A stretch of 64,000 nt of DNA, from positions 62,001 through 126,000 of IMG/VR virus record IMGVR_UViG_3300018080_000118. One strand, 5' to 3'. The notes under the pieces are model-generated. The model saw only the letters and a list, made by a program, of their open reading frames with translations. It did no database searches and was not told the DNA's origin. A program made the position numbers and the translations under genes. This DNA is from a virus. This document shows positions 9,252-52,357 of this stretch, piece after piece. The stretch's first letter is position 1; every line of letters starts with the position of its first letter.

Positions 9252-9265
9252 GTCTGACCCAGGTA

Positions 9266-9293
9266 TTGACTCCGAGCTTCGGTCGGTCATAAT
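9266..9293 (+). promoter_or_regulatory. Sigma-70-like promoter for capsid gene
   Basis: TTGACT (9266-9271), 16 bases, then CATAAT (9288-9293), in the 79-base gap before the major capsid gene. The same -10 hexamer appears in a second candidate promoter at 63101-63106. Confidence 0.6.
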
Positions 9294-9330
9294 ACCTGCA
9301 AAGTGAAACCTCTTTTCAAAGGAGTGAACG

Positions 9331-24643: not shown

Positions 24644-26335
24644 TTATTTGCACTCCAGCTTGTGCTTCTTGCACAGCTCCACGGACCAGTCACGGATGGC
24701 CTTCAGACGATCGAAGCCCGAGATCCCAGGGTTGTTCTCGTTGATGTCTTTGATCTTCGTCGCCAGGTCAGCCTGGGTGATGTGGCCCTCGCTCTTGAGA
24801 AGGGCAAGGTTGGCCTTGGAGGCTTCGCGGACATCCGCCTCGGTCTCCTCTTCCTCCTCTTCCTCCTCCGACTCCAGCAGGTCGTCGGCGAGCCCTTCTT
24901 CTTCGGACTCCTCTTCCTCGGACTCTTCCTCGGCTTCCTCTTCGGACTCCTCCTCAGATTCCTCCTCGGATTCCTCCTCCTTCTTCTTCTTCTTGGAGGT
25001 CTTCTTCTTGGAAGCCTTTTTCTTCTTGGGGGCGACGAGCTCCTTGGCCTCCTCGTTGCTCAGGCCGTAGGTCTCCGGGTCGGTGAGCAGCATCATGAGC
25101 ACCTTCTTGCGGCTCATGCGTGCGGTGACCTTGAAGCCCATGAGGTCTGCCATCTTCTTCAGCTCGTCGTCGTCCAGAGCGAGGAGCTCCTCGGTGGTGA
25201 GCTTCTCGACGGCCGGCGCTGCCTCCGGCACGCTGTCGAAGAAGCGGCCCGAGGTCTTGGGGATGAGCGCCTTGTCGACCTCGACGGGTGTCTCGCGGAC
25301 CTGCCCCTCCTCGACCTTCATGATCTTGGCGGCGCGTGTCTTGGTCGTGGCGAGAACCATGACCTTCTTGTATGCCTTGAAGGCCGCGAAGACGGACGAG
25401 ACGAGACGCTTGTCGGCCAACTTGCGAAGCTCCGCAGGGAGCTCCTTCAGGGCCTCTGCGTCGGACACCACGAGGACTGGCACGATGCTCTTGGGCAGGA
25501 AGCCTGCGAGCATGTTGAGGGCCGCGTCTGCCGACAGGAAAGACGGCTTGGCGTCCTTCGAGTGGTTGGCGGTGAACTCCTGGAGCGCCTTCTCGAAGAG
25601 CTGGCTCGCCGAGTAGTCCCCGTAGATGGGGTGCTCCCGGAGGATACCCAGACACGACTCGATGATCTCCTGAGCCGCACCGGTCTCGGGCTTGAGGACG
25701 AAGTTCTTGGTCTTCTGGCCGCTCTTTCCGGCTTCGATGCCGAGCGCCTTGTTGACCGCCTCCTTCATCTTGGCCCGGTTCTTGTACTCCTTGCCTGGCA
25801 CGGACTGGGCAATGAGTTTCTGGAGCTTCTTGCCGCTGATCGCCCCTTCCTTGAAGCCCCGGTAGATGATGTGCACGTGGCTCGGGGTGATCTTCTTGAA
25901 CATCTTGGTCTCGATGCCCATCTCGACGAAATACTCCACGAGGCGCAGAGAATTCGCCACGGTGCCGGGATCGATGTTCAGATGCTCGTTGCAGAAGTCC
26001 GCGAAGTTCGCACAGTTGTGCTTGAGGTGAACCTCCTCCTGCTTCATCTTCGCGAGGATGACGGCCTTGTGCTTGTCAGCGTCGTCGCTCGCGTCGATCT
26101 TGGTGGCCAGCATACGCTGCTGCGCCTTCAGCGTGTTCGGGATCTCGTACCCGAGCTTGCTCAGGTCGGTGGTCATGAGCTCGCCCGCTGCTGCGGCGGT
26201 CCCGACCTCGGCCTTCTTCTCGACCTTCTTCTTGGCCGCCTTCTTCTTTCCGGCCTTCTTGGCTTTCTTCGCCGGGGCCTTCTTCTTGGAGGAAGCCTTC
26301 TTCACGACCTTCTTCTTTGCCTTCTTCTTTGCCAT
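24644..26335 (-). CDS. Large protein with histone-H1-like lysine tail
   Basis: 563 residues. Residues 1-43 are almost only K and A (MAKKKAKKKVVKKASSKKKAP...), like the tail of histone H1-type DNA-binding proteins. The middle is helical and charged with no motif I can name. Around residues 440-515 is a K/E block (KKTSKKKKKEEESEEESEEE), then a final helical domain (LALLKSEGHITQADLATKIKDI). The gene is in the recombination cluster and a DNA-binding or nucleoid-like role is likely, but the enzymatic function, if any, is unknown. Confidence 0.75.
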   Translation of the reverse strand: MAKKKAKKKVVKKASSKKKAPAKKAKKAGKKKAAKKKVEKKAEVGTAAAAGELMTTDLSKLGYEIPNTLKAQQRMLATKIDASDDADKHKAVILAKMKQEEVHLKHNCANFADFCNEHLNIDPGTVANSLRLVEYFVEMGIETKMFKKITPSHVHIIYRGFKEGAISGKKLQKLIAQSVPGKEYKNRAKMKEAVNKALGIEAGKSGQKTKNFVLKPETGAAQEIIESCLGILREHPIYGDYSASQLFEKALQEFTANHSKDAKPSFLSADAALNMLAGFLPKSIVPVLVVSDAEALKELPAELRKLADKRLVSSVFAAFKAYKKVMVLATTKTRAAKIMKVEEGQVRETPVEVDKALIPKTSGRFFDSVPEAAPAVEKLTTEELLALDDDELKKMADLMGFKVTARMSRKKVLMMLLTDPETYGLSNEEAKELVAPKKKKASKKKTSKKKKKEEESEEESEEESEEEAEEESEEEESEEEGLADDLLESEEEEEEEETEADVREASKANLALLKSEGHITQADLATKIKDINENNPGISGFDRLKAIRDWSVELCKKHKLECK

Positions 26336-28700: not shown

Positions 28701-30236
28701 TTACTCTTCTTCAAGGAGGTCGTCTGTGAGGCTTGCTGCCTCTTCTTCTGCTTCCTTTCTAGCGCTTTGTCGACGTGCTTCTTCGATAGCCCTGTAGTTC
28801 TCCGGCTCATCTCCGAGAGCAACCCCGAGGCAGAGGCCGGGGACTTTCTTTTCGACTTCCTCGAAGGTTTGCTCATAGTACCTCCGCGCCGACTCGAACG
28901 GCGAGTAGCAGTAGTCCTCGAAGCGCAGATGCGCCCGGGCCGTCGTGCTCATCATGAACACGCCCAGCCAGAACCTGCACTCCATCTTGATGTCTTCACG
29001 GCTCAGGAAAGCCTTGACGTCACTGACCTTCTTGAAGGTACGCCCCAGTACGATGTACTTGGACTTCTTCTCCTCGAACAGTCCCAGGTCCTGGAGGACC
29101 GTGTAGACCTTCTCGGCGTCGTCGGTGTCGCCGGGATAGAAGGGGATTCGGTTCATGCTCACAGAGTTGGTGTAGAGTCTGAAGGTCCCCTTGCCCCCGT
29201 CGGGCAGTCCGGCCTTGTTCTTCGACACGCCAAAGTGGGTATCGATGAAAGCCGTGAATGGTAGATCGCCCTTTCCAGCGTTCTTCTTCGTGTAGGTGAA
29301 CTGGATTCGCTGGTCCGCGAAGATCTTTGGACCGCCTCCGCCGGCCTCTATCTTGCGAGGACGCTTGGCAGAGATGTCCATGATGCGGTGGTTCGTCCAG
29401 ATCACGGTAGGGTGGGTGCCCCACTGATTGGATGTCTCCAGTTGCGCGGCTGCGAGGCGTCGCAGACCGTCCCAGTTCATGCGGGCACGGTCAGCTACAT
29501 TCCTCTGGCCTGCGGCCTTCCCCAACGCCTCGTCCGAGATCACTGAGTTCATGGAGTCGATGACCACAAAGTCCTTTGCCCCCGTCTCCAGCACGCGCTG
29601 GAGAAACGTGTAGAGGGCACCTCCTGCTCTGGGTCGCACAATGTGCAGGTTGGCCTTGCGCCCCTTCGGGACCAGGACCTTGAAGCCGCCTGTCTTCTGG
29701 GTCTTTTCCTCGAACCCTGTGCCCAGGCGGCAGCCCCAGATGTCCATCCAGATGGGGTCGCAGGAGCGTTCGATGTCTGCGATGACACCGGTCATGAGTC
29801 TGTTCTTTCCGCAGCGGCAGGTCTCTACGACTTCCCCGGTCTCCTCGTCTACCCACTCGACGGAGAGGGTGTTGCAGAGGCGGCAGGTTCGCAGAAGCGA
29901 TCCGGCCATGATATAGGAGAGCGTACTCTTGCCCTGCGACTGGTCTCCGTTGAGCTCGATGCAGCTTCCGATGGTGGGGCAGAATAGAAGGTCCACTTCG
30001 ACCAAGCCCGTGAAGATCCGTGGATACCTCTGCACCTCCATCTGAGCCGCGTCACTGGTGAAGCTTTGGAACTCCTCCTCGGCCAACACTTCTTCGAAGC
30101 TCAGCCGGGCTTTCTTCTTTGCGGCAATGTCGTCGCGCTCTTTCAGTGGTGTATCGCAGACGGCTTTCTTCTTGCCCTTGCTTTTCTTAGCCGCCTTCTT
30201 CGCGGGCTTCTTCTTGGTGGCTTTCTTCTTCGCCAT
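28701..30236 (-). CDS. RecA/UvsX-like recombinase with zinc insertion
   Basis: This is the strand-exchange ATPase of phage recombination. The 511-residue protein has a lysine-rich N-terminal tail (1-24), then the RecA core: Walker A GDQSQGKST (about 98-106) and Walker B KDFVVIDSM. It departs from RecA by a four-cysteine insertion just after Walker A (CRLC and TCRCG), probably a zinc site. A segment with QWGTHPTVIWTNHRIM corresponds to the post-Walker B strands. The C-terminal tail is acidic. It ends 1 base before the Lys/Arg-rich gene's neighbour region and heads an operon with helicase genes. The family is secure; filament details are not. Confidence 0.82.
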   Translation of the reverse strand: MAKKKATKKKPAKKAAKKSKGKKKAVCDTPLKERDDIAAKKKARLSFEEVLAEEEFQSFTSDAAQMEVQRYPRIFTGLVEVDLLFCPTIGSCIELNGDQSQGKSTLSYIMAGSLLRTCRLCNTLSVEWVDEETGEVVETCRCGKNRLMTGVIADIERSCDPIWMDIWGCRLGTGFEEKTQKTGGFKVLVPKGRKANLHIVRPRAGGALYTFLQRVLETGAKDFVVIDSMNSVISDEALGKAAGQRNVADRARMNWDGLRRLAAAQLETSNQWGTHPTVIWTNHRIMDISAKRPRKIEAGGGGPKIFADQRIQFTYTKKNAGKGDLPFTAFIDTHFGVSKNKAGLPDGGKGTFRLYTNSVSMNRIPFYPGDTDDAEKVYTVLQDLGLFEEKKSKYIVLGRTFKKVSDVKAFLSREDIKMECRFWLGVFMMSTTARAHLRFEDYCYSPFESARRYYEQTFEEVEKKVPGLCLGVALGDEPENYRAIEEARRQSARKEAEEEAASLTDDLLEEE

Positions 30237-33982: not shown

Positions 33983-34488
33983 GTCTCGACCCTCGAACCG
34001 TAGACAAGTGTCTCGTAGAGTGGGTGTTCCGAGCATATCATGCTCGCCGGCTCATCGTCCTCGTACTCCCGCACCTGCGCCACGGTGGTCTTCACCTTGT
34101 GTTTCTCGAAGTGCGAGTCTACAGCGTTGATCGCTTGACGCTCGTCGGAAAAGGCGAGCACCCTGACGTCGCTCTCGTGCTGGAGGATGGCGATGTGTAC
34201 CTGCAGTCCACGAAGGACATGAGCCTCCATCAGGACGTCGCCTTTCAGGCCAGCGTGGATGGCGAGCTCCTTGTACCGTTTCTTGGCGTGGTCCTGCACG
34301 TTCTCCACAGTGCGCGGAGACATGCGGGGATCTCTGGTGGCGCTCTTCACGATCTTGCCGAACAGGTCCTCGTAGTCCGGGAGTCTCGGCGAGGTGCCGT
34401 GCGCCTTCGATGACTGGATCTGCTGTTTCACGTCAGCGACGGCGTCGTCGATCTCCTTGCGATAGATGTCCTCTTCACTCAAAGGCAT
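33967..34488 (-). CDS. Unknown helical protein
   Basis: 173 residues, acidic N-terminus, helical throughout, ending in a beta-like SMICSEHPLYETLVYGSR. It starts within the polymerase C-terminal gene's last bases (14-base overlap), so it belongs to the replication operon. Function unknown. Confidence 0.68.
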   Translation of the reverse strand: MPLSEEDIYRKEIDDAVADVKQQIQSSKAHGTSPRLPDYEDLFGKIVKSATRDPRMSPRTVENVQDHAKKRYKELAIHAGLKGDVLMEAHVLRGLQVHIAILQHESDVRVLAFSDERQAINAVDSHFEKHKVKTTVAQVREYEDDEPASMICSEHPLYETLVYGSRVETCTIN

Positions 34489-35608
34489 GTTTGCGTTCCT
34501 CCATATATTCCTCTAGGGGGATGATCCTCTTCGCCCTTTGCGGGGTGAAGGTGGGTAAGTCCGATGACAGGAAGGTCTGCGCCCAGGATTTTTGTTGAGA
34601 AGACAGCATGGCAACGGCGCTCTTCTTGACGATGCGGTCTTGCTCCTCCAGCTTGAGATACTCCTCCCAGTCTGTCGGCTTGAAGAGGCGCGGCTCAGCT
34701 GCCGCAGCAAGCTCGTCCAGGCTCTTCTTCTCCGTGACCGTTGGGTCTTTCACCTTGGCGAAGAAGGTGCCTACCTCGGGCACTGTATCGTCGTCCTTCT
34801 GCTTCCAGGTCTTGCAGATCTTGGCGCTGGCCAGGAGCGGCACGTCCATCACGAAGAAGGGATATTCCATGATGAACTTGACCATCACAGCACACTGCTG
34901 GGCGGTCTCTTCGGGAGCCTCGAAGACGTACTCGTCGTGCACCTGGATGACAGGCCGGAGTCCCGCGAAATCAGGCTGGTTGAAGATGAACTCCATGAAG
35001 GCCCACATCTGTACTTTCATGATGTCAGCGGCGCTTCCCTGGATCTTGCTGTTGTAGATCTTTCCGGCAGCGACCCTCTCGTAATTATCGAAGTGTCTAA
35101 GCCTGCCGCAGACCGTAGAGAATACGCGGGTGCCCTCCCACCAAGAGCGTCGCAGCTCCTCGTGATAATCGAACACCCCCGCGTAAGTTCGATGAAAGGC
35201 GTTGACGTATCTTTCCGCCGCCGCCACATCGTAGATCTTGGTGCCCGGCTTGTACAGCCGGGCATACCTCGCGAAGTTCTCAGCACGCATGCCGTACATG
35301 AGGCCGAAGTTCAAGTTCTTCGCGAGCTTCCTCGGGACGCCCATCCTTCTGGATGTCTCGGAGTGAGGATCACCCGTGTAGAAGGTGTATCCTTCGAAGT
35401 CCTCATGCTCTCTGTACACACCGAGCAGCGTTGGGTCGTGCGTGATGTGCGCCCCCAGGCGCAGTTCAAGCTGTGACAAGTCACACACGATGAGTACGTA
35501 TCCCTCAGGAGCCTCGAAGACGTCCCGAATCTCTGGGCCGAGTTTCTGGATACGATCGTCGTACTCGCTGGCCTTGTTACGTGAAGGGATATTCTGGAGT
35601 TGTGCCAT
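34475..35608 (-). CDS. DNA polymerase, family A, palm/fingers half (split gene)
   Basis: This part carries the polymerase active site. The 377-residue chain begins AQLQNIPSR, which is the LQNIP element found immediately after TGRLSS in every pol I. Motif A is VCDLSQLELRLGAH (catalytic D), motif B is RKLAKNLNFGLMYGM (R, K, F/Y, G), and motif C is VIQVHDEY (catalytic HDE). All catalytic residues are present. An upstream GTG (35617) is an alternative start. The upstream half (exonuclease and thumb) is a separate gene at 35952, with another gene inserted between. The two halves probably assemble into one enzyme. Confidence 0.88.
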   Translation of the reverse strand: MAQLQNIPSRNKASEYDDRIQKLGPEIRDVFEAPEGYVLIVCDLSQLELRLGAHITHDPTLLGVYREHEDFEGYTFYTGDPHSETSRRMGVPRKLAKNLNFGLMYGMRAENFARYARLYKPGTKIYDVAAAERYVNAFHRTYAGVFDYHEELRRSWWEGTRVFSTVCGRLRHFDNYERVAAGKIYNSKIQGSAADIMKVQMWAFMEFIFNQPDFAGLRPVIQVHDEYVFEAPEETAQQCAVMVKFIMEYPFFVMDVPLLASAKICKTWKQKDDDTVPEVGTFFAKVKDPTVTEKKSLDELAAAAEPRLFKPTDWEEYLKLEEQDRIVKKSAVAMLSSQQKSWAQTFLSSDLPTFTPQRAKRIIPLEEYMEERKHAFE

Positions 35609-35951: not shown

Positions 35952-37328
35952 CTATCCAGTAGAGCTCGACCAGCGCCCTGTCCTGGTTCCTGTCGAGTTG
36001 AAGGTTACGTGCACCTTGGACTTTTTGTTTGGGTCGTTCCTCACCTGCTCCAACAGGCCGATGATAAAGTTCTTGTAGATGATCTGCACAGAACGATAGT
36101 CGAGGATCGCCTGTGCAATGGGATGCTCGATGCGCTGCAGCACCTCTGTCTTGGTTGAGTAGGCCCATGGCTCGTGGGCGATGCCCGCGACCTTGCTGCG
36201 CTTCGTACCCTCCGGCGGTGTCACTCCGAGATCACGATAGATCACCTCGGGGAGATCCTTGTTGGACCGTACGTTGAACTCGCGCTTTGCTATGGCGTGG
36301 ATGTTGGCTTCGAACTCTTCTAGCAGCGGCTCACTACGTTCTCTCAGACCGTCGAGCTTGCCCTCGTTCACGTAAGCCCCGTGCGCCGTCATCTGCAGGG
36401 AGCCCAGATGGTTCGACTCCTCGATCATCAACCATGTCCGCAGCTTGGCCTTGTCGATCCAGCGCATCAGTTTGAGGTAGAGCCTCCAGCACTGAATCGC
36501 ATCGTCCAGAGCGTACTTCTTGAAGAGCTGGTACGCCAGATGGTCGTTCTCTTGCATCTTGAGTTCGAGGACTATCGTCTTTTTTTGTACGATGTCGTGA
36601 AGCTCCTCTAGCACGGCATCGAGCTCGCCCTTTACTTTTTCGGCATAGTCGCGCTTCATCTGGTTGAACTCTTTGCGCGGTGTGAGCCCCTTCATGTCGG
36701 GCCACAGCTCATCGAGCTCTTTCTTCCCTGCGCGTGTGCGCTCTCGGGCTTCCTTCTTCAGGAGACGTTCCTTCTCACGAGCTTCCTTGTGCAGCCCCTT
36801 TATCTGTTCGCTGAGAACAAGATTGGCCTGGTAGAACTCGGAGTCCACAGTGGCCTCCCTAAAGGAGACCATGCGGTGCTTGAAGTGAAGCATGGCCTGA
36901 CCTTTCAGGCCGAGGTCATCCTCCTCGTTGTACATCCAGGCAAGGAGCCGCGTATCGGCTATGCGTGCCTGGACCTCGCGGATATCGATACACCCGCTCC
37001 AGTGAGCAACGAGGAGATCGTAGTTGTGGTAATGGGCTACGGCTGCAAGATCTGACTGCTTGAGCAGACCGCGCAGGAAGGCCGAAGTGGTTTTGTTCCA
37101 CTCCAACACGAGGGCCTTAAAGGGACGATGCTTTCCTGTGGCTAGAGAGAGCAGGACCGGCCGAGCAACCATGGCGTTAGTTGTCGGCCGGTCCCGTTCA
37201 TCAACACACTCGAAGTCGAAGGCAAAGCCTCCTACTTGCTTGGCCACGTTCCAGAATCGGCGGAGTTGCTCAGTCGTCCCAGGGGTTCCCCTCTTCTTCG
37301 CTCTCTTCGCCTTCTTCCTCTTCTTCAT
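35952..37328 (-). CDS. DNA polymerase, family A, exonuclease/thumb half (split gene)
   Basis: The 458-residue protein contains the 3'-5' proofreading domain: Exo I FAFDFEC (D-x-E), Exo II HYHNYDLLV and Exo III YALDDAIQ (Y-x-x-x-D). A long charged coiled coil (about 190-240) and a thumb-like part follow. It stops at STGTRTGRWSSSTG, where an intact pol I would run on into PNLQNIP. The rest is the next-but-one gene. A lysine/arginine-rich N-terminus (MKKRKKAKRAKKR) is likely an added tail. The start is uncertain since it overlaps the SSB-like gene by 59 bases with no clear ribosome site. Confidence 0.85.
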   Translation of the reverse strand: MKKRKKAKRAKKRGTPGTTEQLRRFWNVAKQVGGFAFDFECVDERDRPTTNAMVARPVLLSLATGKHRPFKALVLEWNKTTSAFLRGLLKQSDLAAVAHYHNYDLLVAHWSGCIDIREVQARIADTRLLAWMYNEEDDLGLKGQAMLHFKHRMVSFREATVDSEFYQANLVLSEQIKGLHKEAREKERLLKKEARERTRAGKKELDELWPDMKGLTPRKEFNQMKRDYAEKVKGELDAVLEELHDIVQKKTIVLELKMQENDHLAYQLFKKYALDDAIQCWRLYLKLMRWIDKAKLRTWLMIEESNHLGSLQMTAHGAYVNEGKLDGLRERSEPLLEEFEANIHAIAKREFNVRSNKDLPEVIYRDLGVTPPEGTKRSKVAGIAHEPWAYSTKTEVLQRIEHPIAQAILDYRSVQIIYKNFIIGLLEQVRNDPNKKSKVHVTFNSTGTRTGRWSSSTG

Positions 37329-38694
37329 CCTGGCTTTCCCAGTATTCGACGATGGCCTTGATGGTGGCCTTTCGTTTCACCTTGCCCTTCTTGTCGCGCA
37401 CAGGTTCTACGCCCAGCTCCTGCGCTTCCGCCACCAGGGCCTGAATGGGGGTCTCTTCCTTGTCGAGAAGGCGAGCCTGGAGATCCTCGATGGTCTCCTC
37501 CTCTTCATCTTCGCCTTCCTCAGCTTCCTCAGCTTCCTCTTCCTCTTCGGCTTCCTCGGCTTCCTCGACGCCCGCTTCTTCGTCCTCGTCCTCGTCGTCG
37601 ATCTTGTCGCCGAGATCAGTGAGGCCAGGAGTGGGGGTCTCTGTGGGGCCGGAGAAGTTGCCTTCCAGGGAGATCATGCCGAGACCACGGCTAGCCGGTG
37701 CGTCGTCTTCGTCGTCTTCGTCGTCGGCTGCTGCTGTGTCGTCGAGCTTGAGGCCAAGCTCCTTCGCCACGTGGGCGTCGAAGCCTTTCCCCGGGTCGTG
37801 CTTGAGGTACATGCTCACGTGCCGCTGCATGATGGCCGTGACGAGCTCCTCGTGACGCTTGGCCGGGAAGACGTTGTCTGCTGCTCCGTCCAGGACGGGG
37901 TAGCAGCGATCGATGTCCACGGGATAGTAGATCGTGTCGATCTGGTCCTGCTCTACGGTCTTGTCGAGCTGGGCAACCCAGTTGGTGCCAACTCGGGAGG
38001 CGTTCTGCTCCATGCCGCGCTGAACCTTGAAGACGGTGCCGATGACCGGCAGGCCACGAAGATGGCGCTCCTTGAGCCCGTCGCTGACAGCGCGCTGGGT
38101 AGAGTCACTGTCGAGCACGAGGAGCCGGGGCGGTTGGTGGTAGGTGATGCCCCTCTTGTCGACCATGGGCTCGTTCTGTGGCCGCAGGTCGATGACGCCG
38201 CCCACCTGAATGATGGACCACCTGTCGCCGAGAAGCGCGCACATCGGACACTTCACTCCCGTTGACAGGACCTTCGGGGCTTTGGTGTCCGGGTCGAACC
38301 CGTACTTGAGCCCCAGGCACCGGACCTTCTCGCGACGATAGAACTTGCCGCCGCGCTTGCTGGTGCCACGACCGATAGCCACGGTGTGGACGACGATGGG
38401 GAGCGGAAGCTGGGCGATCACGCACAGCCCGCTTTCTCCGTTCTTGAGCGCCCACGAGTAGGTCTTGGGCTTCGTGCCATCGTCGTAGGGTTTGGTGGGC
38501 GAGCGCTCAGCCCAGATGGGACCCCACACCTCGGGGCCGCGCTGCTGCGACTCGGCCGAGTCCTTGGCGGCACCCGTTACGAGCTGCAGCTCCATAGGAA
38601 GACTGGAGATGTCTTCCTCCTTGGTGAGCTCTGCCTGGATGTCTGCAAGAGAGCTACCAGCGCTCTTCTTGCCCTTACCTTTCTTCTTTGCCAT
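37270..38694 (-). CDS. Putative ssDNA-binding protein with acidic tail
   Basis: 474 residues, starting MAKKKGKGKK (short lysine tail). The core (about 55-330) has CLGL ... KCPMCALLG, a possible zinc site like that in T4 gp32. Residues about 330-440 are nearly all D and E, with another acidic end (DEEEEEGEESEEEGNPWDD). Acidic tails typical of single-strand-binding proteins recruit partners and compete for DNA. Position between polymerase and primase supports SSB. The family is not confirmed by an obvious OB-fold motif. Confidence 0.6.
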   Translation of the reverse strand: MAKKKGKGKKSAGSSLADIQAELTKEEDISSLPMELQLVTGAAKDSAESQQRGPEVWGPIWAERSPTKPYDDGTKPKTYSWALKNGESGLCVIAQLPLPIVVHTVAIGRGTSKRGGKFYRREKVRCLGLKYGFDPDTKAPKVLSTGVKCPMCALLGDRWSIIQVGGVIDLRPQNEPMVDKRGITYHQPPRLLVLDSDSTQRAVSDGLKERHLRGLPVIGTVFKVQRGMEQNASRVGTNWVAQLDKTVEQDQIDTIYYPVDIDRCYPVLDGAADNVFPAKRHEELVTAIMQRHVSMYLKHDPGKGFDAHVAKELGLKLDDTAAADDEDDEDDAPASRGLGMISLEGNFSGPTETPTPGLTDLGDKIDDEDEDEEAGVEEAEEAEEEEEAEEAEEGEDEEEETIEDLQARLLDKEETPIQALVAEAQELGVEPVRDKKGKVKRKATIKAIVEYWESQDEEEEEGEESEEEGNPWDD

Positions 38695-43430: not shown

Positions 43431-43451
43431 TGACCACTCCACGAGTTGTCA
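43431..43451 (-). promoter_or_regulatory. Dispersed 21-bp near-palindrome, copy e
   Basis: On the minus strand TGACAACTCG, T, GGAGTGGTCA, one of the more diverged copies. Its first three bases are the TGA stop of the initiator gene, and it ends 20 bases before the ATG of the next gene, so it fills the 38-base gap. Confidence 0.65.
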
Positions 43452-44471
43452 TATTTTTATGCGTGTGACCCTTCCCTTGAAGGCAGGATCGTCCAATAGG
43501 TCGCCACTGCTTTCGTCCTCGTACTCCTTGAGGATGCGTGGTAGGAAGGACGCGAGAGTTGTGATGCTGATCATCCACCCCTCCTCCCTCCCTCGGCTCT
43601 TGAAGAACTTCGACTGCAGCTCCGACCAGTTGTCAGGCAACCACTGGCAAAGGAGCTTGTACTGCTCCGGAGCCTTCATGCCTTGGCGCGACAGCATACC
43701 GCGAACACGAGTAAGGGCGGTAAGGGCTGCATGCCTATGGGGTGGCGATACCTCGATGCTGTGCGAGTTCATCGCACTCTTGAAGCGGGAGAACCACTTT
43801 GACCCATCCCACTTCGTCACAGACCTCGGCACCGTCTCTTTGTGGGCCGCCGAGAAGTCTGGGGGTTTGGCTTTCTTGCCACGAGGAATCGAGGGCTGAT
43901 CCAGGCGACGCTTTGCTGCGTCCTTCGCCTTCTGCTCCTGGGCCTCCTCGTGGGCCAACGCTTTCTGGATTGCTGGGTCTTCTTCCAGTAGATCCATTAG
44001 GTCCATTCCAGAATCCTGCCCTATGTCTGTTTCTTTTTTGTCTTCTTCTTCTTTGTCCGCCACTGACGGCGGTATCGGCCCGCCACTGGTGGCGGAATCG
44101 TCCCGCCATATTTGGCGGTCCGGTCCGCCAGATTCGGCGGGGCAGGAATCAAGATCTAGTGGGTGGGACTCGAAGGGTGTGTCACATGAGGTGTACAGGT
44201 CAGGTATGTGGGCGAAGACAGTGACGCCTGATGTGCCCATTCTCTGGCGGATCTCGATCAGGCCGAATTTCTTGAGTTCTGCGATGTACCGCTCAACCGT
44301 CCTCAGCCCCATGCCCATCTCCTCGGCCAGCCGTTCCTGCCCAACCAGGCAGTAGTCCTTGTCCAGGCATCTGGACTTGACGAAGGTGTAGACGACCTTG
44401 GCTCCGAGGGATATCCGCGTATCGTAGAGCAGCGCGTGGGGTATCGGAACGAAGGCGTACTCAATTCCCAT
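43449..44471 (-). CDS. Replication initiator-like protein (HTH + internal origin)
   Basis: This is the likely origin-binding initiator. In 340 residues the N-terminal 100 form a winged-helix/HTH domain (SLGAKVVYTFVKSRCLDKDYCLVGQERLAEEMGMGLRTVERYIAELKKFGLIEI as overlapping helices). Residues about 105-150 are a disordered linker with PAESGG, SATSGGP and PSVADK, encoded by the iteron array. After an acidic stretch, a C-terminal helical domain (about 210-340) could recruit the helicase. This is the lambda O arrangement: HTH, origin in the linker, partner-binding end. It ends at copy e of the near-palindrome. Confidence 0.74.
   Translation of the reverse strand: MGIEYAFVPIPHALLYDTRISLGAKVVYTFVKSRCLDKDYCLVGQERLAEEMGMGLRTVERYIAELKKFGLIEIRQRMGTSGVTVFAHIPDLYTSCDTPFESHPLDLDSCPAESGGPDRQIWRDDSATSGGPIPPSVADKEEEDKKETDIGQDSGMDLMDLLEEDPAIQKALAHEEAQEQKAKDAAKRRLDQPSIPRGKKAKPPDFSAAHKETVPRSVTKWDGSKWFSRFKSAMNSHSIEVSPPHRHAALTALTRVRGMLSRQGMKAPEQYKLLCQWLPDNWSELQSKFFKSRGREEGWMISITTLASFLPRILKEYEDESSGDLLDDPAFKGRVTRIKI
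44024..44140. other. Candidate replication origin: four iterons in initiator gene
   Basis: Four 16-bp units of the form CCGCCA, four bases, T/C-GGCGG lie at 44057, 44080, 44103 and 44125 (start-to-start spacing 23, 23 and 22). Arms are near-identical, while the central four bases vary. Next to them is a pyrimidine-rich, AT-rich tract (44024-44056) that is a strand-asymmetric candidate unwinding region. Confidence 0.68.
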
Positions 44472-46018: not shown

Positions 46019-46060
46019 CTAAAAGAAAAGGAGACCCCCGCGCAAAATGCGGGGGCCTCC
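46019..46060 (-). terminator. Rho-independent terminator after the cassette
   Basis: On the minus strand GGAGGCCCCCGC, loop, GCGGGGGTCTCC, then TTTTCTTTT. It ends the E2-JAB-E1-modifier message and begins immediately after near-palindrome copy f. Confidence 0.85.
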
Positions 46061-46061
46061 T

Positions 46062-46082
46062 TGATCACTCCGGGAGTTGTCA
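46062..46082 (-). promoter_or_regulatory. Dispersed 21-bp near-palindrome, copy f
   Basis: On the minus strand TGACAACTCC, C, GGAGTGATCA, between the stop of the ubiquitin-like gene and the terminator. Unlike most copies it is not next to a start codon. Confidence 0.68.
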
Positions 46083-46086
46083 CGGT

Positions 46087-46407
46087 CTAGCCGCGATCCT
46101 TGGGGGCGGGCTGGAACATGACTTCGTCGCCCGGCTTGGTCACGTAGGAGTCGTTGACCTTGTCGCCGTTGACGAGCGGGATCATGTTCTCGCGCAGGTC
46201 GAACTTGTCCCACAGGGCGCTCTTGATCTGGCCGATGGTCTTGCCCGGGGGGAAGTTCGAGGTGGGGTAGTCCTTGTAATCCGAGGTGGCGCGGCGTTCC
46301 ACGCGCACCTGGGCCTGGGGAGCCTCGGCGGTCTCGGCGGCCTCGGCGCGGCGGGGCTGGTTCACGTTCACGTCGATTTCGATGCGGGCGTCGGGATCAC
46401 TACTCAT
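46087..46407 (-). CDS. Ubiquitin-like beta-grasp modifier protein
   Basis: 106 residues from the ATG at 46407 (AAGGAGAAACC upstream, ATGA overlap with the E1 gene). After a 30-residue acidic disordered N-terminus, residues about 35-105 read as a beta-grasp fold: strand RVERRATSDY, GKTIGQIKSALWDKF helix, IPLVNGDKVNDSYVTKPGDEVMF strands. The chain ends KDRG, with a single glycine rather than the Gly-Gly of ubiquitin. Position after JAB and E1 genes indicates the conjugated modifier, like the Prok_Ub protein of PRTRC cassettes. Fold call rests on pattern and context. Confidence 0.72.
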   Translation of the reverse strand: MSSDPDARIEIDVNVNQPRRAEAAETAEAPQAQVRVERRATSDYKDYPTSNFPPGKTIGQIKSALWDKFDLRENMIPLVNGDKVNDSYVTKPGDEVMFQPAPKDRG

Positions 46408-47126
46408 GGTTTCTCCTTCCTGGTAAGAGGCTTGCTCCACATAGGCCGCATACTCGGCCCAGTGGCGTCAAATAGAACTTCGTTGACGGAGGGTGCCGCG
46501 TCCGTCCTCCACCTGAGGGACCACCATGCGCAGAGCATAGAGGTGGCCGCCAGCAGATTTGCAAAGACGAGCTGCGGTTGCGACTGGACGATCTCCATGC
46601 AGGACGGATCATCTGGGAACTTCCCCGGCATCGAGGTCATTTCAGGATGCACCTCGTCGATTGTCGGGGTCAGATTCTTTCCGCCCTGTCGCATGAAGAT
46701 CTGGCACTGGCCGTCGTGGTACTCGTTGCCACCAATGAACAGGGCAACATCTCGCAGCTTCAGCGCCTCTTGCTGAACAAAGAGCCGACTCGGGTGGTTG
46801 TCGACTCCCACGAAGATATCAGCATCAGTCTGCCAGTACCAGCGTTTCGCTGTCTTGACAGTCTTCGGGCTGAATGCTTCGGGTACGCTATGTAGGCGCA
46901 CATTTCTTGGTCTCAGCTGTTCTTCCAGCATCTTGACCAGGGCCGACGCTTTGCCCATGCCGATGGTGCCTGGGCCGAACTGCCGGGCAGTATTGCTTCT
47001 CTCGATCGTGTCTGGATCGACAAAGAAGATTTCGCTCGGAACGTCGGAGTGTTCTAGGAACCGTACCAGCGGCACGGATAGATGATAGCCTATGCCCCCA
47101 CAACCGATGACGATGATGTTTTTCAC
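46404..47126 (-). CDS. E1-like (ThiF-family) activating enzyme
   Basis: This adenylates and transfers the modifier. 240 residues from a GTG at 47126 in a GTGA overlap with the JAB gene. Features: nucleotide-binding VIGCGGIGYHL (about 6-16), FFVDPDTIERSNTARQ (about 35-49, D and N/R of the E1 family), FVGVDNHPSR (about 105-113), and PSCMEIVQSQPQLVFANL with C176 in the place of the catalytic cysteine of PRTRC-type ThiF proteins. It overlaps both partner genes by 4 bases, so expression is coupled. No zinc CxxC pair is evident. Confidence 0.85.
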   Translation of the reverse strand: MKNIIVIGCGGIGYHLSVPLVRFLEHSDVPSEIFFVDPDTIERSNTARQFGPGTIGMGKASALVKMLEEQLRPRNVRLHSVPEAFSPKTVKTAKRWYWQTDADIFVGVDNHPSRLFVQQEALKLRDVALFIGGNEYHDGQCQIFMRQGGKNLTPTIDEVHPEMTSMPGKFPDDPSCMEIVQSQPQLVFANLLAATSMLCAWWSLRWRTDAAPSVNEVLFDATGPSMRPMWSKPLTRKEKP

Positions 47127-48604
47127 GGAGCCTCCCACACCTTGTCGGCGGCGTAGGCGAGGTGGTCGATGCAGGTCTCAACCTGGTGATACCCCTTCAT
47201 GCCGGGCTTGAGTTTCTTGCCGATGCCGAGGAGTCTCGTGAGTAGCTTGTCGTGCTCCTGCGGAGAGAGGGTCCACGAGATACGCCGCACCATTGTCGAG
47301 ACCTTGTCCCAGTAGGTGGATATGCCAGAAGCCTCAGCTTGCGTGATCTTCAGCATGACACCCTGCAATGTGGGCATCTCTCCAGGGTCAGGGCGAGTGA
47401 GCGCGAGCGAGTCGTCCTCGATCAGCTCCATGTTGGTTGGCTTCACGAAGTCAGTGAGGTCCGCCTCCCGTATCCTTTCGTAGGTGAGGCTGCGAGGATA
47501 GTTGCTGTGGTATCTGCTCCTCGTACTGCCCCGCCGCTCTGACGAGCTCTTAGCTGCACTCGCCTTTTTCTTTTCCTCGGCTGCGCGTTTCATCATCTCT
47601 CGGCGTACCAGCAGCCAGTTGTTGATCTGGCCGTTGAAGGCTTCGTCTCTGTGCTCAGTGGCAAAGAGATCGGAAATGTTGAGTGGGATGCGGACGTCGC
47701 CGTCGCAGAAGGAGAGCACCAAGGACTCCTGGGCCTTGTCGAGGTTCCCCACAGTCATGTGGAATCCGATGTGAGGAATCTCGTGCTTGTTGTCTGTACC
47801 GCTGGAGAAGGCGGCCATTGCCCCGTGACTGTGTATGGTGCCCATGCAGCGCAGAACTTGTAGCTCGTTGCCGCAAGAACATACCACCTCTTCCCTGGGG
47901 TTGACCGTCATGGTGATGCGACACTTGCTACAGAAGTGCGTGCCCAGCTCGAAGCGCAGGTGTGCGCTACTCTGGCCGAGCGTCGTTGGTAGAAGGAGCA
48001 GGACGTCCCGTGGGCGAAGAATATATCGCCGAGAGTCGTTCTCCGATTGGGGAACGGGTCGAGGGACTCGGTGCATCACCAGGATGTCCTCGCTCTTGTG
48101 ATCCCGGTATGCTTCCCTCATGAACCTCACCATCCTGTGCAGGACGGTCCTGTGGATCAGAGGGTGGCTCCCCAGGAAGATCGCTGGCTGCATCGGCAGG
48201 TCCAGCTTCCCCATCTTCCGGCCCACCGTCTCCGGGTTCTTGGTCATCGTGTCCAGGACGATGTCCGTCCACTTCTTCAGGAGTGGCGGCATCTCCCAGG
48301 CTGACAGTGATGTCGACGTGGTCGGCAGGGAGCTCTGGGGTGACAGTGATGAGTCCGACGACGGGTCCGTCGAAGTCGAACTCGACTTCGATGTGGCTGG
48401 GAGGCCGAGGTTGCTCAGGTCGCTCCTCAGCTCCCTCGTCAGCTTCTCCTTCAGGTAGTCCCTCAGGATGTTCTGGTTCTTCGAGTCCTTCTTCAGGGGC
48501 TTGATCACCGTCAGCTCCTTCAGGTGCGTGACTTTCATCAAACCCTTCTTCGTCAAGAGAATCCCGTCTGTAGTCGGGATCTCCAGGTGGATCTTGTTGT
48601 TCAT
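47123..48604 (-). CDS. JAB/JAMM isopeptidase-like protein
   Basis: 493 residues. The JAMM motif is complete: H258-S-H260, seven residues, S268, two residues, D271 (GTIHSHGAMAAFSSGTD), which binds zinc in deubiquitinases. Just before it, C225, C228, C242 and C244 make a zinc ribbon. Residues 1-70 (lysine-rich, well biased codons) and 70-100 (mostly S and T) precede. The first 638 bases of the gene also encode a second open frame (see 47967-48914). It overlaps E1 by 4 bases. Role: removal or maturation of the modifier. Confidence 0.84.
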   Translation of the reverse strand: MNNKIHLEIPTTDGILLTKKGLMKVTHLKELTVIKPLKKDSKNQNILRDYLKEKLTRELRSDLSNLGLPATSKSSSTSTDPSSDSSLSPQSSLPTTSTSLSAWEMPPLLKKWTDIVLDTMTKNPETVGRKMGKLDLPMQPAIFLGSHPLIHRTVLHRMVRFMREAYRDHKSEDILVMHRVPRPVPQSENDSRRYILRPRDVLLLLPTTLGQSSAHLRFELGTHFCSKCRITMTVNPREEVVCSCGNELQVLRCMGTIHSHGAMAAFSSGTDNKHEIPHIGFHMTVGNLDKAQESLVLSFCDGDVRIPLNISDLFATEHRDEAFNGQINNWLLVRREMMKRAAEEKKKASAAKSSSERRGSTRSRYHSNYPRSLTYERIREADLTDFVKPTNMELIEDDSLALTRPDPGEMPTLQGVMLKITQAEASGISTYWDKVSTMVRRISWTLSPQEHDKLLTRLLGIGKKLKPGMKGYHQVETCIDHLAYAADKVWEAP

Positions 48605-48914
48605 GATCTGGGCCTCGGTTACAGGTGGGACAAAGGGGTGATTCGGAACGCCTTCCGTTCCTGTATAGACTTCTCAGGATGACGGCCATGCCGTCCATGC
48701 TGCCGTCATCGATGTGGTGGGATGAAGACCTTCCTTCGTCATCCAGCAGGTCGAGCACCTCCCTGAGCTTGTATCGATCAGGGTCTACAGTATGTCTGTA
48801 ATGTATGGTGCGCGGATAGGCCGCTTTGAGTCGACGAGCCATCGTTTTGTAGAAGGTTTGCTCGTCCGGGGTGACCCGTGGGAGTCGCTTGATTGCACGG
48901 ATCATATCATCCAT
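47967..48914 (-). CDS. Overlapping ORF upstream of JAB: zinc knuckle plus acidic region
   Basis: 315 residues. The non-overlapping N-terminal part (48605-48914) looks like real coding: MDDMIRAIKRLPRVTPDEQ and CPTCNRGPD. It then enters the JAB gene in another frame: D/E/G/P-rich, then HIEVEFDFDGPVVGLITV (around 48300-48420) with good codon bias, whereas the last 110 residues look like out-of-frame sequence. It may be a separate protein, or the first part of a fused protein joined to JAB by +1 frameshifting or a sequencing error. The E2-like gene overlaps its start by 8 bases. Confidence 0.55.
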   Translation of the reverse strand: MDDMIRAIKRLPRVTPDEQTFYKTMARRLKAAYPRTIHYRHTVDPDRYKLREVLDLLDDEGRSSSHHIDDGSMDGMAVILRSLYRNGRRSESPLCPTCNRGPDHEQQDPPGDPDYRRDSLDEEGFDESHAPEGADGDQAPEEGLEEPEHPEGLPEGEADEGAEERPEQPRPPSHIEVEFDFDGPVVGLITVTPELPADHVDITVSLGDAATPEEVDGHRPGHDDQEPGDGGPEDGEAGPADAASDLPGEPPSDPQDRPAQDGEVHEGSIPGSQERGHPGDAPSPSTRSPIGERLSAIYSSPTGRPAPSTNDARPE

Positions 48915-49575
48915 TAGAGCCTCCTACAGTGTCGCCGAATGCGCCGGCGTCGCGCCACTCGATTTCGGAGAAGCTCGATTGCCAGTCTTCTTCGTGCCTT
49001 TGTGTCCAGGCGGCCCATCTGTCCAGCATGCGCGTGAATTGGCCATCAGCGCCTTCCCTGAAGTCGCGGGGCATTGCCTCTTTCGCGTACGAGATGTGAT
49101 CGGTGTTGTGCCGGGTGCGCTCCACCTGATTCACCACGTGGTCGATCCGGAACACGAGGCACTCATCCTGCGAGGCGAACATGACTCCGCTGGCGCAGAT
49201 ATCACCTTGGAGGGTTCTGTTCGGGAACGGAGCCTGGTAGACCCGGGTCTCCATGGAGGTTGGCAGGTCGAGCATGAAGTGTTGCTTGACCGTCCGGATA
49301 CCGCCGTTCTTCATGATGACGGTGTAGAGCCGGTGCGGCATAGCTACGGTGAAGACCCGATTCGCCTGATTCATTTCGCGGACTTCCGCACGTCGGATGA
49401 CGGCGATGACAGTCTTATCGCTGTCCTCGGAATAGTAGACGGTGCCAACCGGGAGCAGCGGTGTTGTGACGCTGTTTCTGGAGATCGCTCTCCGGAAATC
49501 TTCAACGGGCACGATGTCGTGCGTGGTCTCTTCGACGAGCATCGCCACGCCATCTGTTATTACGATCTTCTGCAT
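48907..49575 (-). CDS. E2-like protein (PRTRC protein B type)
   Basis: 222 residues. The key segment is ETRVYQAPFPNRTLQGDICASG (about 109-130, shown here in overlapping part): proline-rich PFPN then G-D-x-C, with C127 in the place of the E2-type active cysteine of PRTRC B / Prok-E2 proteins. Before it are beta strands (PHRLYTVIMKNGGIRTVKQH). It lies first in the cassette, overlapping the reverse transcriptase gene by 16 bases and the next ORF by 8. It is the likely carrier of the modifier between E1 and target; the cysteine has not been shown to be active. Confidence 0.62.
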   Translation of the reverse strand: MQKIVITDGVAMLVEETTHDIVPVEDFRRAISRNSVTTPLLPVGTVYYSEDSDKTVIAVIRRAEVREMNQANRVFTVAMPHRLYTVIMKNGGIRTVKQHFMLDLPTSMETRVYQAPFPNRTLQGDICASGVMFASQDECLVFRIDHVVNQVERTRHNTDHISYAKEAMPRDFREGADGQFTRMLDRWAAWTQRHEEDWQSSFSEIEWRDAGAFGDTVGGSNG

Positions 49576-50708
49576 AGTGTCCTCAGATGTTTGAGCTCAC
49601 CCCTCCACGTCTCGCCTTTCTCGTCCTTGCCTCCGAAGAAGTAGGGCTTGAGTTGCGGCGACACAGCGCAGATGGCGGCGATCTTGCCTTGGACTTTCTT
49701 GAATCCGCGCCGGGTGATCTTCCTGACATTTCCTTCTTTGTCGCGGAAGTGGCCGGGCGGTACCTTTCCCTCTTCGATGTCCATGATCATGCGATGGATG
49801 CGGCCTCGCCAGTACCGGCGCTGCCGCCGTCTGGCATTGACCGTGTCTTGTCCCACGACCACGCCGCAGACTTCGAGGCGCTGCGGGGCCTTGAACTTCT
49901 TGGTCTTCTTCTCTTTGATCTTGAAGTCGCAGTCCTCGACGATGACGCGGATAGGGTGCAGGATGTTGTGCAGCGCCCACACACGCCTGTCTCGATTCCT
50001 GCGGCTGACGTTCATTCCCCGTTGCAGTCTTCGCCGAACCTCTTTGGGCGGCAGGTCGTAGTTCGAGCTGATGGTGATGTCATCGGCGTACCGTGTGTAC
50101 GCGATGGGATCCATGCGCGGCCGCCTGAATGGGGCGCACCCGTCCATCGGCTCTCGTCTCCACGCCTCGCATAGGCGCGCGATACGGTAGTCCAGTTGCC
50201 GGGCAGCGATGTTGGACAACATCGGGCTGGATGGCGCACCCTGGGGTAACCCGCCGTCGAGGAAGCAGGCGCGCATGACCAAGGCAAACAGCCAGTCCGG
50301 GATGTCGACGTCGTAGCGCAGCGCCTCGCCTACGACTTTCGGGGTGCACGAAGGGAAGAAGTCCTTGAGGTCGATCTTCAGCAGGTACTTATGGCCCATG
50401 TGCGGCTGTGCGTTCGATCGCAGGTTTCGTTCACGCCCGGGCTTTTTCCGGATGAACGCGTGCGCGTACTTCGATGGCCCGTACAGACGGCCGAGCTCGC
50501 GCGCGATGAGCGTCTGCAGCTTCTTGAGTCCTGGCAGCGGTTCTTGGATCTTCCGCATGCCCCCCGTGCGCTTGGGGATGAGGACCGTCGGGTGGTAGTC
50601 TTTCTCGGTTGCCACCCAATCCGGGTCTTCCAGGAGGTCCTGGAACCCCGCATCACCGTCCGCCAGTTGCAGCGGAAGAGTGAGCTGTTCAAGCTCCTCT
50701 ATGAACAT
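49560..50708 (-). CDS. Retron-type reverse transcriptase
   Basis: 382 residues with the RT core: PKRTGGMRKIQEPLPGLKKLQ (RT1-2), NAQPHMGHKYLLKIDLKDFFPS (RT3; the NAxxH motif of retron RTs precedes catalytic D), LPQGAPSSPMLSNIAARQLD (RT4), TRYADDITIS (RT5, catalytic DD), and VCGVVV (RT7-like, in the place of the retron VTG). The basic C-terminus likely binds its RNA. Retrons make a branched RNA-DNA hybrid from a nearby non-coding RNA. Candidate structured regions lie upstream (50753-51084). The start overlaps nothing; the end overlaps the E2-like gene. No DGR repeats are seen. Confidence 0.85.
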   Translation of the reverse strand: MFIEELEQLTLPLQLADGDAGFQDLLEDPDWVATEKDYHPTVLIPKRTGGMRKIQEPLPGLKKLQTLIARELGRLYGPSKYAHAFIRKKPGRERNLRSNAQPHMGHKYLLKIDLKDFFPSCTPKVVGEALRYDVDIPDWLFALVMRACFLDGGLPQGAPSSPMLSNIAARQLDYRIARLCEAWRREPMDGCAPFRRPRMDPIAYTRYADDITISSNYDLPPKEVRRRLQRGMNVSRRNRDRRVWALHNILHPIRVIVEDCDFKIKEKKTKKFKAPQRLEVCGVVVGQDTVNARRRQRRYWRGRIHRMIMDIEEGKVPPGHFRDKEGNVRKITRRGFKKVQGKIAAICAVSPQLKPYFFGGKDEKGETWRGELKHLRTLCRRS

Positions 50709-50752: not shown

Positions 50753-50789
50753 GGAGGACGGGGTGGATTTCGCTAGGTCCACCCCGTCC
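50753..50789 (-). terminator. Strong hairpin, terminator or retron RNA element
   Basis: GGACGGGGTGGA and TCCACCCCGTCC form a perfect 12-bp stem around a 10-base loop. On the minus strand it is followed by TCCTTTTA. It fits a terminator for the small gene at 50815 but could instead be part of an RNA used by the reverse transcriptase. Confidence 0.55.
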
Positions 50790-51643: not shown

Positions 51644-52357
51644 ATGGCTGAACCTGGCTCCATCGGCAAGAAGCCACAGGGGTCCTTCGTCAACACAAGT
51701 CAGATGGTCGACGACATCAAGCGCAAGAAGGAGCTTGAGTCGCTCGAACAGATGAAGGATCGGAAGGAAGAAGAGGCTCTGGAGGAAGAGGAGAAGAAGC
51801 AGAACGCGGAGATCGACAAGCTCCTGCCCGAGCGTGTCGAGTCTGCCTTCGGCGAGCTTCCCTACGCAACCTTCAAGGAGCTCTATCAGGACGTATTCGA
51901 TGCAGTGGCCAACAAGGACCACTGGTCTCTCGGATACGTCTCCCATGCGATGGACTTGTACGACGGTGTGCCCGTCCGAGTCCGTACGCTGAGGAAACGC
52001 GAGGCCGACGTGCTGCGCGGGGTGGCTCCCAAGGGCGCGGCCTATCCGGGCGCGGACATCGACCAGTTCAATGCGGAACGGGCGGAGTACGAGACTGTCC
52101 GCTTGCTGGTCTGTCTGCAGCAGTTCGGCGAGATCCAGTTCGAGGATAGCGTGAAGCTGTCGCTCGCCAACTTCTCTGAGTGGCGTGAGTCCAAGGACGC
52201 CAAGGCCCGTGCCGAGCAAGTCGACGACCTGCCTGACGAGGTGATCTCTCTCCTCGGAGCCGTCATCAACGATACGATGGTCGCGTATCGCTGTGCGATG
52301 ACGGAAAACTTAAAAAACCAATTAGCACCTCTCTCGCGTACTACCGCCTCCGATTAG
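51644..52357 (+). CDS. Tail assembly chaperone (short form)
   Basis: 237 residues from the ATG at 51644 (GGAG 9 bases upstream; a TTG at 51629 is less likely). It is charged and helical with a long coiled coil near residues 25-60. Near its 3' end a slippery A AAA AAC signal makes part of the product continue into the next frame, giving an extended protein as in lambda G/GT. Position immediately upstream of the tape-measure candidate supports the assignment. Confidence 0.72.
   Translation: MAEPGSIGKKPQGSFVNTSQMVDDIKRKKELESLEQMKDRKEEEALEEEEKKQNAEIDKLLPERVESAFGELPYATFKELYQDVFDAVANKDHWSLGYVSHAMDLYDGVPVRVRTLRKREADVLRGVAPKGAAYPGADIDQFNAERAEYETVRLLVCLQQFGEIQFEDSVKLSLANFSEWRESKDAKARAEQVDDLPDEVISLLGAVINDTMVAYRCAMTENLKNQLAPLSRTTASD

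What the first reader, a model, noticed from the sequence alone, without database searches (positions are those of the whole stretch)
46087..49575. Complete ubiquitin-like conjugation cassette in a phage
E2-like (C127), JAB/JAMM (full HxH-x7-S-x2-D), E1/ThiF (GCGGIG, catalytic-type C176) and a beta-grasp modifier are encoded in one direction, with 4-base overlaps between JAB, E1 and modifier and a terminator after the modifier. The set matches PRTRC-type proteins A, B, C and ThiF, but no ParB-like partner is seen in the window. The modifier ends in RG, not GG, after an unusual acidic N-terminus. Such systems can modify host or phage proteins, or counter or mimic antiviral Bil/CBASS-type conjugation.
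Basis: partly seen in the sequence, partly recalled or inferred. Interest (0 to 1): 0.85.

Follow-up and report, generated by a model that had tools for sequence, protein, structure and literature searches.

The report
Phage reverse transcriptase–ubiquitin-like operon
A large bacterial virus carries a complete ubiquitin-like protein-tagging pathway in one operon with a reverse transcriptase, and the same unexpected pairing recurs in several unrelated groups of phages, which points to an undescribed phage system joining RNA-to-DNA copying with protein tagging.

Summary
On the minus strand of a 136-kb phage record lie an E2 (Prok-E2_D-like, PNRTLQGDIC, Cys127), a JAMM protease (full motif), a ThiF-type E1 (Cys176) and a beta-grasp modifier ending in RG. 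The E2 start overlaps the end of a retron-clade reverse transcriptase (RT; 49560-50708), and terminators lie on both sides of the set.

This is a recurrent architecture. All four relatives found through a flanking gene carry RT-E2-X-JAMM-E1-Ubl, at 39% RT identity or less. Related RTs sit next to other phage cassettes in at least three further lineages. In one, 73 of 80 loci picked by E1 alone have the RT just downstream, usually after a conserved structured RNA.

Canonical retron RNA was not found in the window, and two relatives have no room for it. ParB is absent, so PRTRC membership fails. RG is the family's normal [K/R]G tail.

Best reading: a reversible ubiquitin-like conjugation pathway (likely) functionally tied to an RT (very likely). 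The RT or its nucleoprotein is the most probable regulated partner, by analogy with CBASS type II (inferred). I found no publication describing the pairing, though the library was limited.

The parts
49560..50708 (-). retron-clade reverse transcriptase, 382 aa, first gene of the unit (NAQPH, KIDLKDFF, LPQGAPSSP, YADD, VCG in place of VTG)
   Evidence: RVT_1 1.2e-16; retron St85 RT 1e-46; PADLOC RT-TIR_XII 2e-50; Ec86 RT is best PDB match; motifs; only RT in the record
48907..49575 (-). E2-like conjugating enzyme, 222 aa, Prok-E2_D-like, Asn119 and Cys127 invariant, PN-x4-G-x-I-C
   Evidence: AF2 model pLDDT 82; 16-base overlap with RT
47967..48914 (-). ORF X: N-terminal ~100 codons are coding and have their own Shine-Dalgarno; the rest overlaps the JAMM gene in another frame. 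Positional counterpart of the small divergent gene between E2 and JAMM in relatives
   Evidence: codon-phase analysis; relatives' X ORFs; synonymous-shuffle test
47123..48604 (-). JAMM/JAB isopeptidase, 493 aa, complete metal-binding motif, with a CxxC...CxC zinc-ribbon-like insert shared with the nearest relatives
   Evidence: Prok-JAB 7e-4, PRTRC_A 6.5e-5; alignment; AMSH are the best (non-significant) PDB profile matches
46404..47126 (-). ThiF-type E1, 240 aa, GCGGIG, Cys176
   Evidence: PF00899 5e-14; invariant residues; 4-base overlap with JAMM
46087..46407 (-). beta-grasp modifier, 106 aa, ending ...KDRG
   Evidence: homologues after E1 in L063, L066 and L101 ending KERG, KSRG, NEKG; AF2 plus Foldseek hits to ubiquitin folds
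46028..46062 (-). intrinsic terminator after the modifier
   Evidence: 14-pair stem, T-rich tail
50756..50789 (-). perfect 12-bp hairpin followed by TCCTTTTAC, 47 bp upstream of the RT start; read as the terminator of the upstream unit
   Evidence: the same hairpin + CTTTTAC signature occurs at 51053-51034 and upstream of RT in L066 and L101

Best explanation
The locus is one phage operon, RT - E2 - X - JAMM - E1 - Ubl. The E1 adenylates the modifier's C-terminal Gly (...DRG). E2 Cys127 accepts it and attaches it to a target, and the JAMM protease removes it again; in relatives with tandem or extended modifiers it presumably also matures the precursor. The RT is part of the system, not a bystander. 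The most likely logic is the one known from CBASS type II: a nucleic-acid-handling polymerase whose activity or complex is switched by an E1/E2 pathway and reset by a JAMM protease. The RT, or a protein on its RNA/cDNA complex, would be the main thing modified. The unit sits at the head of the replication region and is inherited as a core module of this phage family. Directly shown: gene set, order, conserved catalytic residues, modifier fold, recurrence with RT. Inferred: conjugation chemistry, target, direction of control. My estimates: RT functionally linked 0.9; functional Ubl conjugation 0.85; RT or its complex as the regulated partner 0.4.
For: (1) RT and E2 overlap by 16 bases, with terminators on both sides of the six genes. 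(2) A scan with the flanking gene 51644-52357 returned four relatives; all four (L063/L064/L066/L101 contigs) carry RT-E2-X-JAMM-E1-Ubl at the same place, and their RTs form one clade with the window (99/98). (3) Loci picked by E1 alone: 7 of 50 have a related RT within 9 kb; expected about 0.006 if independent. (4) A second E1 family: RT 10-1559 bp downstream on the same strand in 73 of 80 loci; 4 of 7 misses are contig ends; 59 of 75 have a JAMM-motif ORF just before E1. (5) Other orders also keep the RT: Ubl-E2-JAMM-E1-RT in L069 and L078, with the RT after E1 in L112 too; RT-LigA-E2-JAMM-E1-Ubl in L020 and L034. (6) Catalytic residues invariant: E2 N119/C127 (31 of 31), E1 C176, JAMM E172/H258/H260/S268/D271. 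(7) Modifier tails [K/R]G in most lineages; beta-grasp model.
Against: E1-E2-JAMM cassettes without any RT exist in related phages (L174, L176, L177) and in plasmids (L002-L007), so the RT is not obligatory. L066 and L101 RTs have YCDN instead of YADD, so catalysis may be dispensable or altered there. The L064 modifier ends KSQSN, without Gly. The E2 model has no significant PDB match. RT C-termini lack a Gly that could be conjugated as CD-NTase is in CBASS. Nothing here identifies a target; the RT-as-partner step is by analogy.
Confidence: 0.6

Rival explanations
1. Retron-type defence or exclusion system: the RT with a template RNA makes an RNA-DNA complex that senses a competing phage or a host defence, and the Ubl pathway is the effector released by it.
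For: The RT belongs to the retron clade. In the second lineage the E1-RT gap holds a conserved structured RNA: 5 of 7 pairs with compensatory changes; a model from 12 loci gave 79 hits, all on the same strand. Retrons pair RT with variable effectors (established knowledge).
Against: No such RNA and no Rfam match in the window. In L063 and L064 the gene upstream ends about 40-57 bp before RT, and in L069, L078, L112 and L013 RT abuts or overlaps the previous gene. The cassette is a core gene set at a fixed position, not a variable cargo island.
Confidence: 0.2
2. Replication or genome-maintenance module: Ubl modification acts on phage replication proteins (as SUMO and ubiquitin act on PCNA), with the RT handling RNA-DNA intermediates.
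For: The unit heads the leftward replication operon (DnaD/initiator-like 43449-44471, DNA polymerase). NAD-dependent DNA ligase sits between RT and E2 in L020 and L034. Related cassettes on plasmids lie near replication or partition genes.
Against: Position alone is weak; early operons also hold anti-host genes. Related phages lack the RT.
Confidence: 0.2
3. One reading: a stand-alone Ubl cassette that modifies host or phage proteins, or counters Bil/CBASS, with the RT an unrelated neighbour.
For: RT-free cassettes exist in phages and plasmids.
Against: RT linkage recurs in several lineages and gene orders far above expectation. It is kept in all four relatives found by a flanking gene.
Confidence: 0.08

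Closest known systems
Type 6d ubiquitin-like operons of Iyer, Burroughs and Aravind 2006 (PMC1779556; Ub-like, JAB, E1, E2, helical protein), the class to which Prok-E2_D and PRTRC cassettes belong
   Same: Ub-like protein, JAB, stand-alone E1, stand-alone E2 without the classical His, and a small divergent extra gene
   Different: Carried by a phage as a core gene set, headed by a reverse transcriptase; very divergent sequences; zinc-ribbon-like insert in JAMM
PRTRC plasmid/ICE system (TIGR03735, TIGR03736)
   Same: Distant similarity of JAMM and E1
   Different: Scores far below cut-offs; no ParB in the record
Retrons (types I-XIII)
   Same: RT of the retron clade with an NAxxH motif; associated genes
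   Different: No msr-msd RNA found; VTG reads VCG; no published retron with E1/E2/JAMM/Ubl that I could find
CBASS type II (CD-NTase, Cap2 E2-E1, Cap3 JAB; PMC10097602)
   Same: A nucleic-acid or nucleotide polymerase paired with E1, E2 and JAMM enzymes
   Different: RT in place of CD-NTase; separate E1 and E2; dedicated Ubl; RT C-terminus lacks Gly
Bil (BilABCD) antiphage conjugation
   Same: Four-part Ubl/E2/JAB/E1 set
   Different: Phage-borne with an RT; no library match to Bil; sequence relation not otherwise tested

Membership tests
Type 6d Ub-E2-JAB-E1 cassette | stand-alone E1, E2 with active-site Cys, JAMM with full metal motif, beta-grasp Ub-like protein in one operon | tested here: met
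Type 6d Ub-E2-JAB-E1 cassette | E2 with an absolutely conserved His C-terminal to the Cys | tested here: inconclusive
   window has RHNTDH after Cys127, but the position is not invariant in A6
Type 6d Ub-E2-JAB-E1 cassette | extra rapidly diverging helical protein | tested here: inconclusive
   ORF X and its counterparts lie between E2 and JAMM but show no recognisable homology
PRTRC system | PRTRC ParB-family protein | tested here: not met
   no PF02195 match in the 136-kb record
PRTRC system | components above the NCBIfam cut-offs | tested here: not met
   22.6 vs 101.8 and 44.3 vs 144.75 bits
Retron | RT of the retron clade with NAxxH and VTG motifs | tested here: inconclusive
   clade and NAQPH met; VTG replaced by VCG throughout the window clade
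Retron | msr-msd non-coding RNA next to the RT | tested here: not met
   no Rfam or model match; relatives L063 and L064 have no room upstream. An RNA unlike known families cannot be excluded in the window's 425-bp gap
Retron | RT-dependent msDNA | not testable with these tools
   needs experiment
Diversity-generating retroelement | RT of DGR type | tested here: not met
   RT scores as retron type and motif B reads LPQGAPSSP
Diversity-generating retroelement | TR/VR repeats | not tested
   repeats were not searched
CBASS type II | CD-NTase and fused E2-E1 (Cap2) | tested here: not met
   E1 and E2 are separate genes; the first gene is an RT
Bil | BilA-D homologues | tested here: inconclusive
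   no Bil-named match in NCBIfam or PADLOC, but presence of such models was not verified

The most novel reading that the evidence does not exclude
Phages encode a distinct class of system in which a retron-clade reverse transcriptase (with its own structured RNA in some lineages) works together with E1, JAMM protease and usually E2 and a [K/R]G-ended modifier: reverse transcription and ubiquitin-like conjugation as one switchable machine.
Probability: 0.45. Interest if true: 0.93.

Novelty: new variant of a known kind. Interest (0 to 1): 0.82.

Why it matters
No function of phage-borne type 6d-like cassettes, and no link between reverse transcription and ubiquitin-like conjugation in prokaryotes, was found in the literature searched. 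The recurrence across phage lineages makes a small, testable hypothesis. It would extend the polymerase + E1 + JAMM logic of CBASS to reverse transcriptases, and give a minimal phage system for studying the origin of ubiquitin-type signalling.

Tried and rejected
- Single-protein scans of viral contigs with E1, RT or JAMM found no relatives; alignments were needed.
- PRTRC membership: rejected.
- Canonical retron RNA upstream of the window RT: Rfam, folding and the second-lineage RNA model gave nothing. The strong hairpin at 50789-50756 is read as a terminator.
- CBASS-like conjugation of the RT C-terminus: no conserved terminal Gly.
- DGR or group II intron RT: motifs and family scores favour the retron clade.
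- A frameshift joining ORF X to JAMM: codon phase alternates, but relatives have separate X and JAMM genes. Open frame by chance 0.8-1.5%; left open.
- E2 fold search against PDB: no significant hit; the E2 call rests on family homology and motif.
- Hand-picked hairpin counts are biased by selection; the model search is the fairer test.
- The key retron survey papers tried by DOI are not held.

Full report
OBSERVATION. The record is a 135,946-bp IMG/VR virus contig with terminase large subunit, major head protein, DNA polymerase and sigma factor, so it is a phage. The window protein matches are weak but coherent: E1 to ThiF at 5e-14, JAMM to Prok-JAB at 7e-4, E2 to Prok-E2_D at 0.009, modifier to MoaD-like families at about 0.1.

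WHAT WAS MISSED. The gene immediately upstream, 49560-50708, is a reverse transcriptase of the retron clade (retron St85 RT 1e-46; PADLOC RT-TIR 2e-50; Ec86 RT the best solved relative). Its stop overlaps the E2 start by 16 bases. It is the only RT in the record. A GC-rich hairpin with a CTTTTAC tail lies 47 bp before the RT and a strong terminator lies after the modifier, so the six genes look like one transcription unit. Between E2 and JAMM lies an ORF (X) with a good Shine-Dalgarno whose first ~100 codons are coding.

COMPONENT CHECKS. E1: the nucleotide-binding and adenylation residues and Cys176 are invariant across divergent relatives. JAMM: Glu172, His258, His260, Ser268 and Asp271 are invariant, and AMSH proteases are the best, though non-significant, profile matches in PDB. 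E2: Pro80, Asn119 and Cys127 are invariant in 31 relatives. The stretch PNRTLQGDIC has the same Asn-to-Cys spacing as the HPN...C active site of classical E2s (established knowledge), and 25 of 31 relatives match PF14460. The E2 model is confident (pLDDT 82), but no solved fold matches significantly. Modifier: the model (pLDDT 71) matches only ubiquitin, Ubl and MoaD-like folds at the top. Its tail is of the family type: KDRG here, KERG, KSRG, NEKG, GRKG, GNKG, GEKG and GTKG elsewhere; L026 and L033 carry a short extension that would need trimming; L064 lacks the Gly.

RECURRENCE WITH THE RT. Scanning viral contigs with the E1 alignment gave 50 loci, 7 with a related RT within 9 kb. Scanning with the RT alignment gave 80 loci; 24 RT loci in all lie near an E1, including the best and second-best RT matches to the window. 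L063, L064, L066 and L101 have the window's exact order, and the same three diverging neighbour genes. Their RTs group with the window RT at 99/98 support, with identities of 39% or less, so the association is old. RT-associated RTs fall in several separate clades: a rumen-type lineage with RT-(LigA)-E2-JAMM-E1-Ubl (L020, L026, L027, L033, L034); L069 and L078 with Ubl-E2-JAMM-E1-RT (L112, similar, lies on a long branch); L013; and a large lineage with JAMM-E1-RT. For the last, 80 loci were chosen by E1 alone, and 73 have the RT on the same strand 10-1559 bp downstream; four of the seven misses are contig ends. A rough expectation from the number of such RTs in the collection is about 0.01. 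This estimate ignores phylogeny and near-copies, but the effect is far beyond them.

LIMITS OF THE ASSOCIATION. Cassettes without RT exist in phages (L174, L176 and L177, none in the whole record) and in plasmids. Of 24 loci from bacterial and archaeal genomes, only one had an RT, on the other strand.

IS IT A RETRON? By RT sequence it is close: NAQPH is the retron NAxxH motif, though the VTG motif reads VCG in all five members of the clade, and two members have YCDN at the active site. A non-coding RNA is the defining retron feature. In the window a 425-bp gap precedes the RT, but it holds a small ORF and two terminator-like hairpins, gives no Rfam match, and in L063 and L064 there is no room. 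In the JAMM-E1-RT lineage the E1-RT gap does hold a conserved structured RNA: five of seven consensus pairs show compensatory change, and a covariance model built from 12 loci found 79 matches over 88 loci, every one on the coding strand, many in held-out loci just after E1 and many again downstream of the RT, and none in the window lineage. So some relatives look like true RNA-dependent RTs; for the window this is not shown.

MECHANISM. Shown: gene set, order, invariant catalytic residues, modifier fold, recurrence. From established biochemistry of these families: E1 adenylates the modifier C-terminus, E2 Cys carries it, JAMM cleaves it. Inferred: that the RT or its nucleoprotein complex is the regulated partner, by analogy with CBASS type II, where a polymerase-type enzyme is paired with E1/E2 and JAMM enzymes (PMC10097602). 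Core components common to all RT-bearing lineages are JAMM, E1 and RT, which fits that analogy. Rivals are a retron-like sensor with a Ubl effector, and a replication or maintenance role suggested by position and by the ligase gene in one lineage.

KNOWN OR NEW. The conjugation part fits the type 6d operons of Iyer et al. 2006 (PMC1779556). PRTRC membership fails (no ParB; scores far below cut-off). I found no paper linking RTs with such cassettes, but only openly licensed papers were searchable and two key retron surveys were not held.

Noticed in passing
L195-L274, E1-RT gaps (e.g. L238:6676-6733, L239:6697-6755) and again downstream of RT (e.g. L226:8601-8658, L239:12277-12339): A conserved structured RNA element lies between E1 and RT and often recurs downstream of the RT; 79 model matches, all on the coding strand. 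It may be a retron-like RNA family present in several copies.
   Followed up: partly
L063, L064, L066 and L101, just upstream of the RT start: A 12-13-residue hydrophobic micro-ORF sits directly before the RT (MLLLALSAICAVI, MIFLDFLASLIN, VILTVLRALIAAL, MILAVLKALLAAL); no clear counterpart in the window.
   Followed up: no
window 47967-48914: The 315-aa frame of ORF X stays open through 212 codons of the JAMM gene in another frame (0.8-1.5% of synonymous shuffles) and codon phase briefly favours it at 48434-48290: overlapping gene, frameshift or chance.
   Followed up: partly
L066 RT 9004-10056; L101 RT 9001-10104: RT active site reads YCDN instead of YADD while the whole cassette is kept.
   Followed up: no
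L064:13682-14125: The modifier ends KSQSN and lacks the C-terminal Gly, unlike all near relatives.
   Followed up: no
L020:4522-6540, L034:4258-6333: NAD-dependent DNA ligase (confirmed by Pfam in L020) sits between RT and E2 in a rumen-type phage lineage.
   Followed up: partly
window 24644-26335, 28701-30236, 37270-38694 (minus strand): Three phage proteins begin with long Lys/Ala-rich, histone-tail-like stretches (MAKKKAKKK..., MAKKKATKKKPAKKAAKK..., MAKKKGKGKK...).
   Followed up: no
window 34475-35608 (minus): The DNA polymerase ORF covers only part of its family profile (phrog_17 981-1285 of 1445), so the polymerase may be split among ORFs.
   Followed up: no
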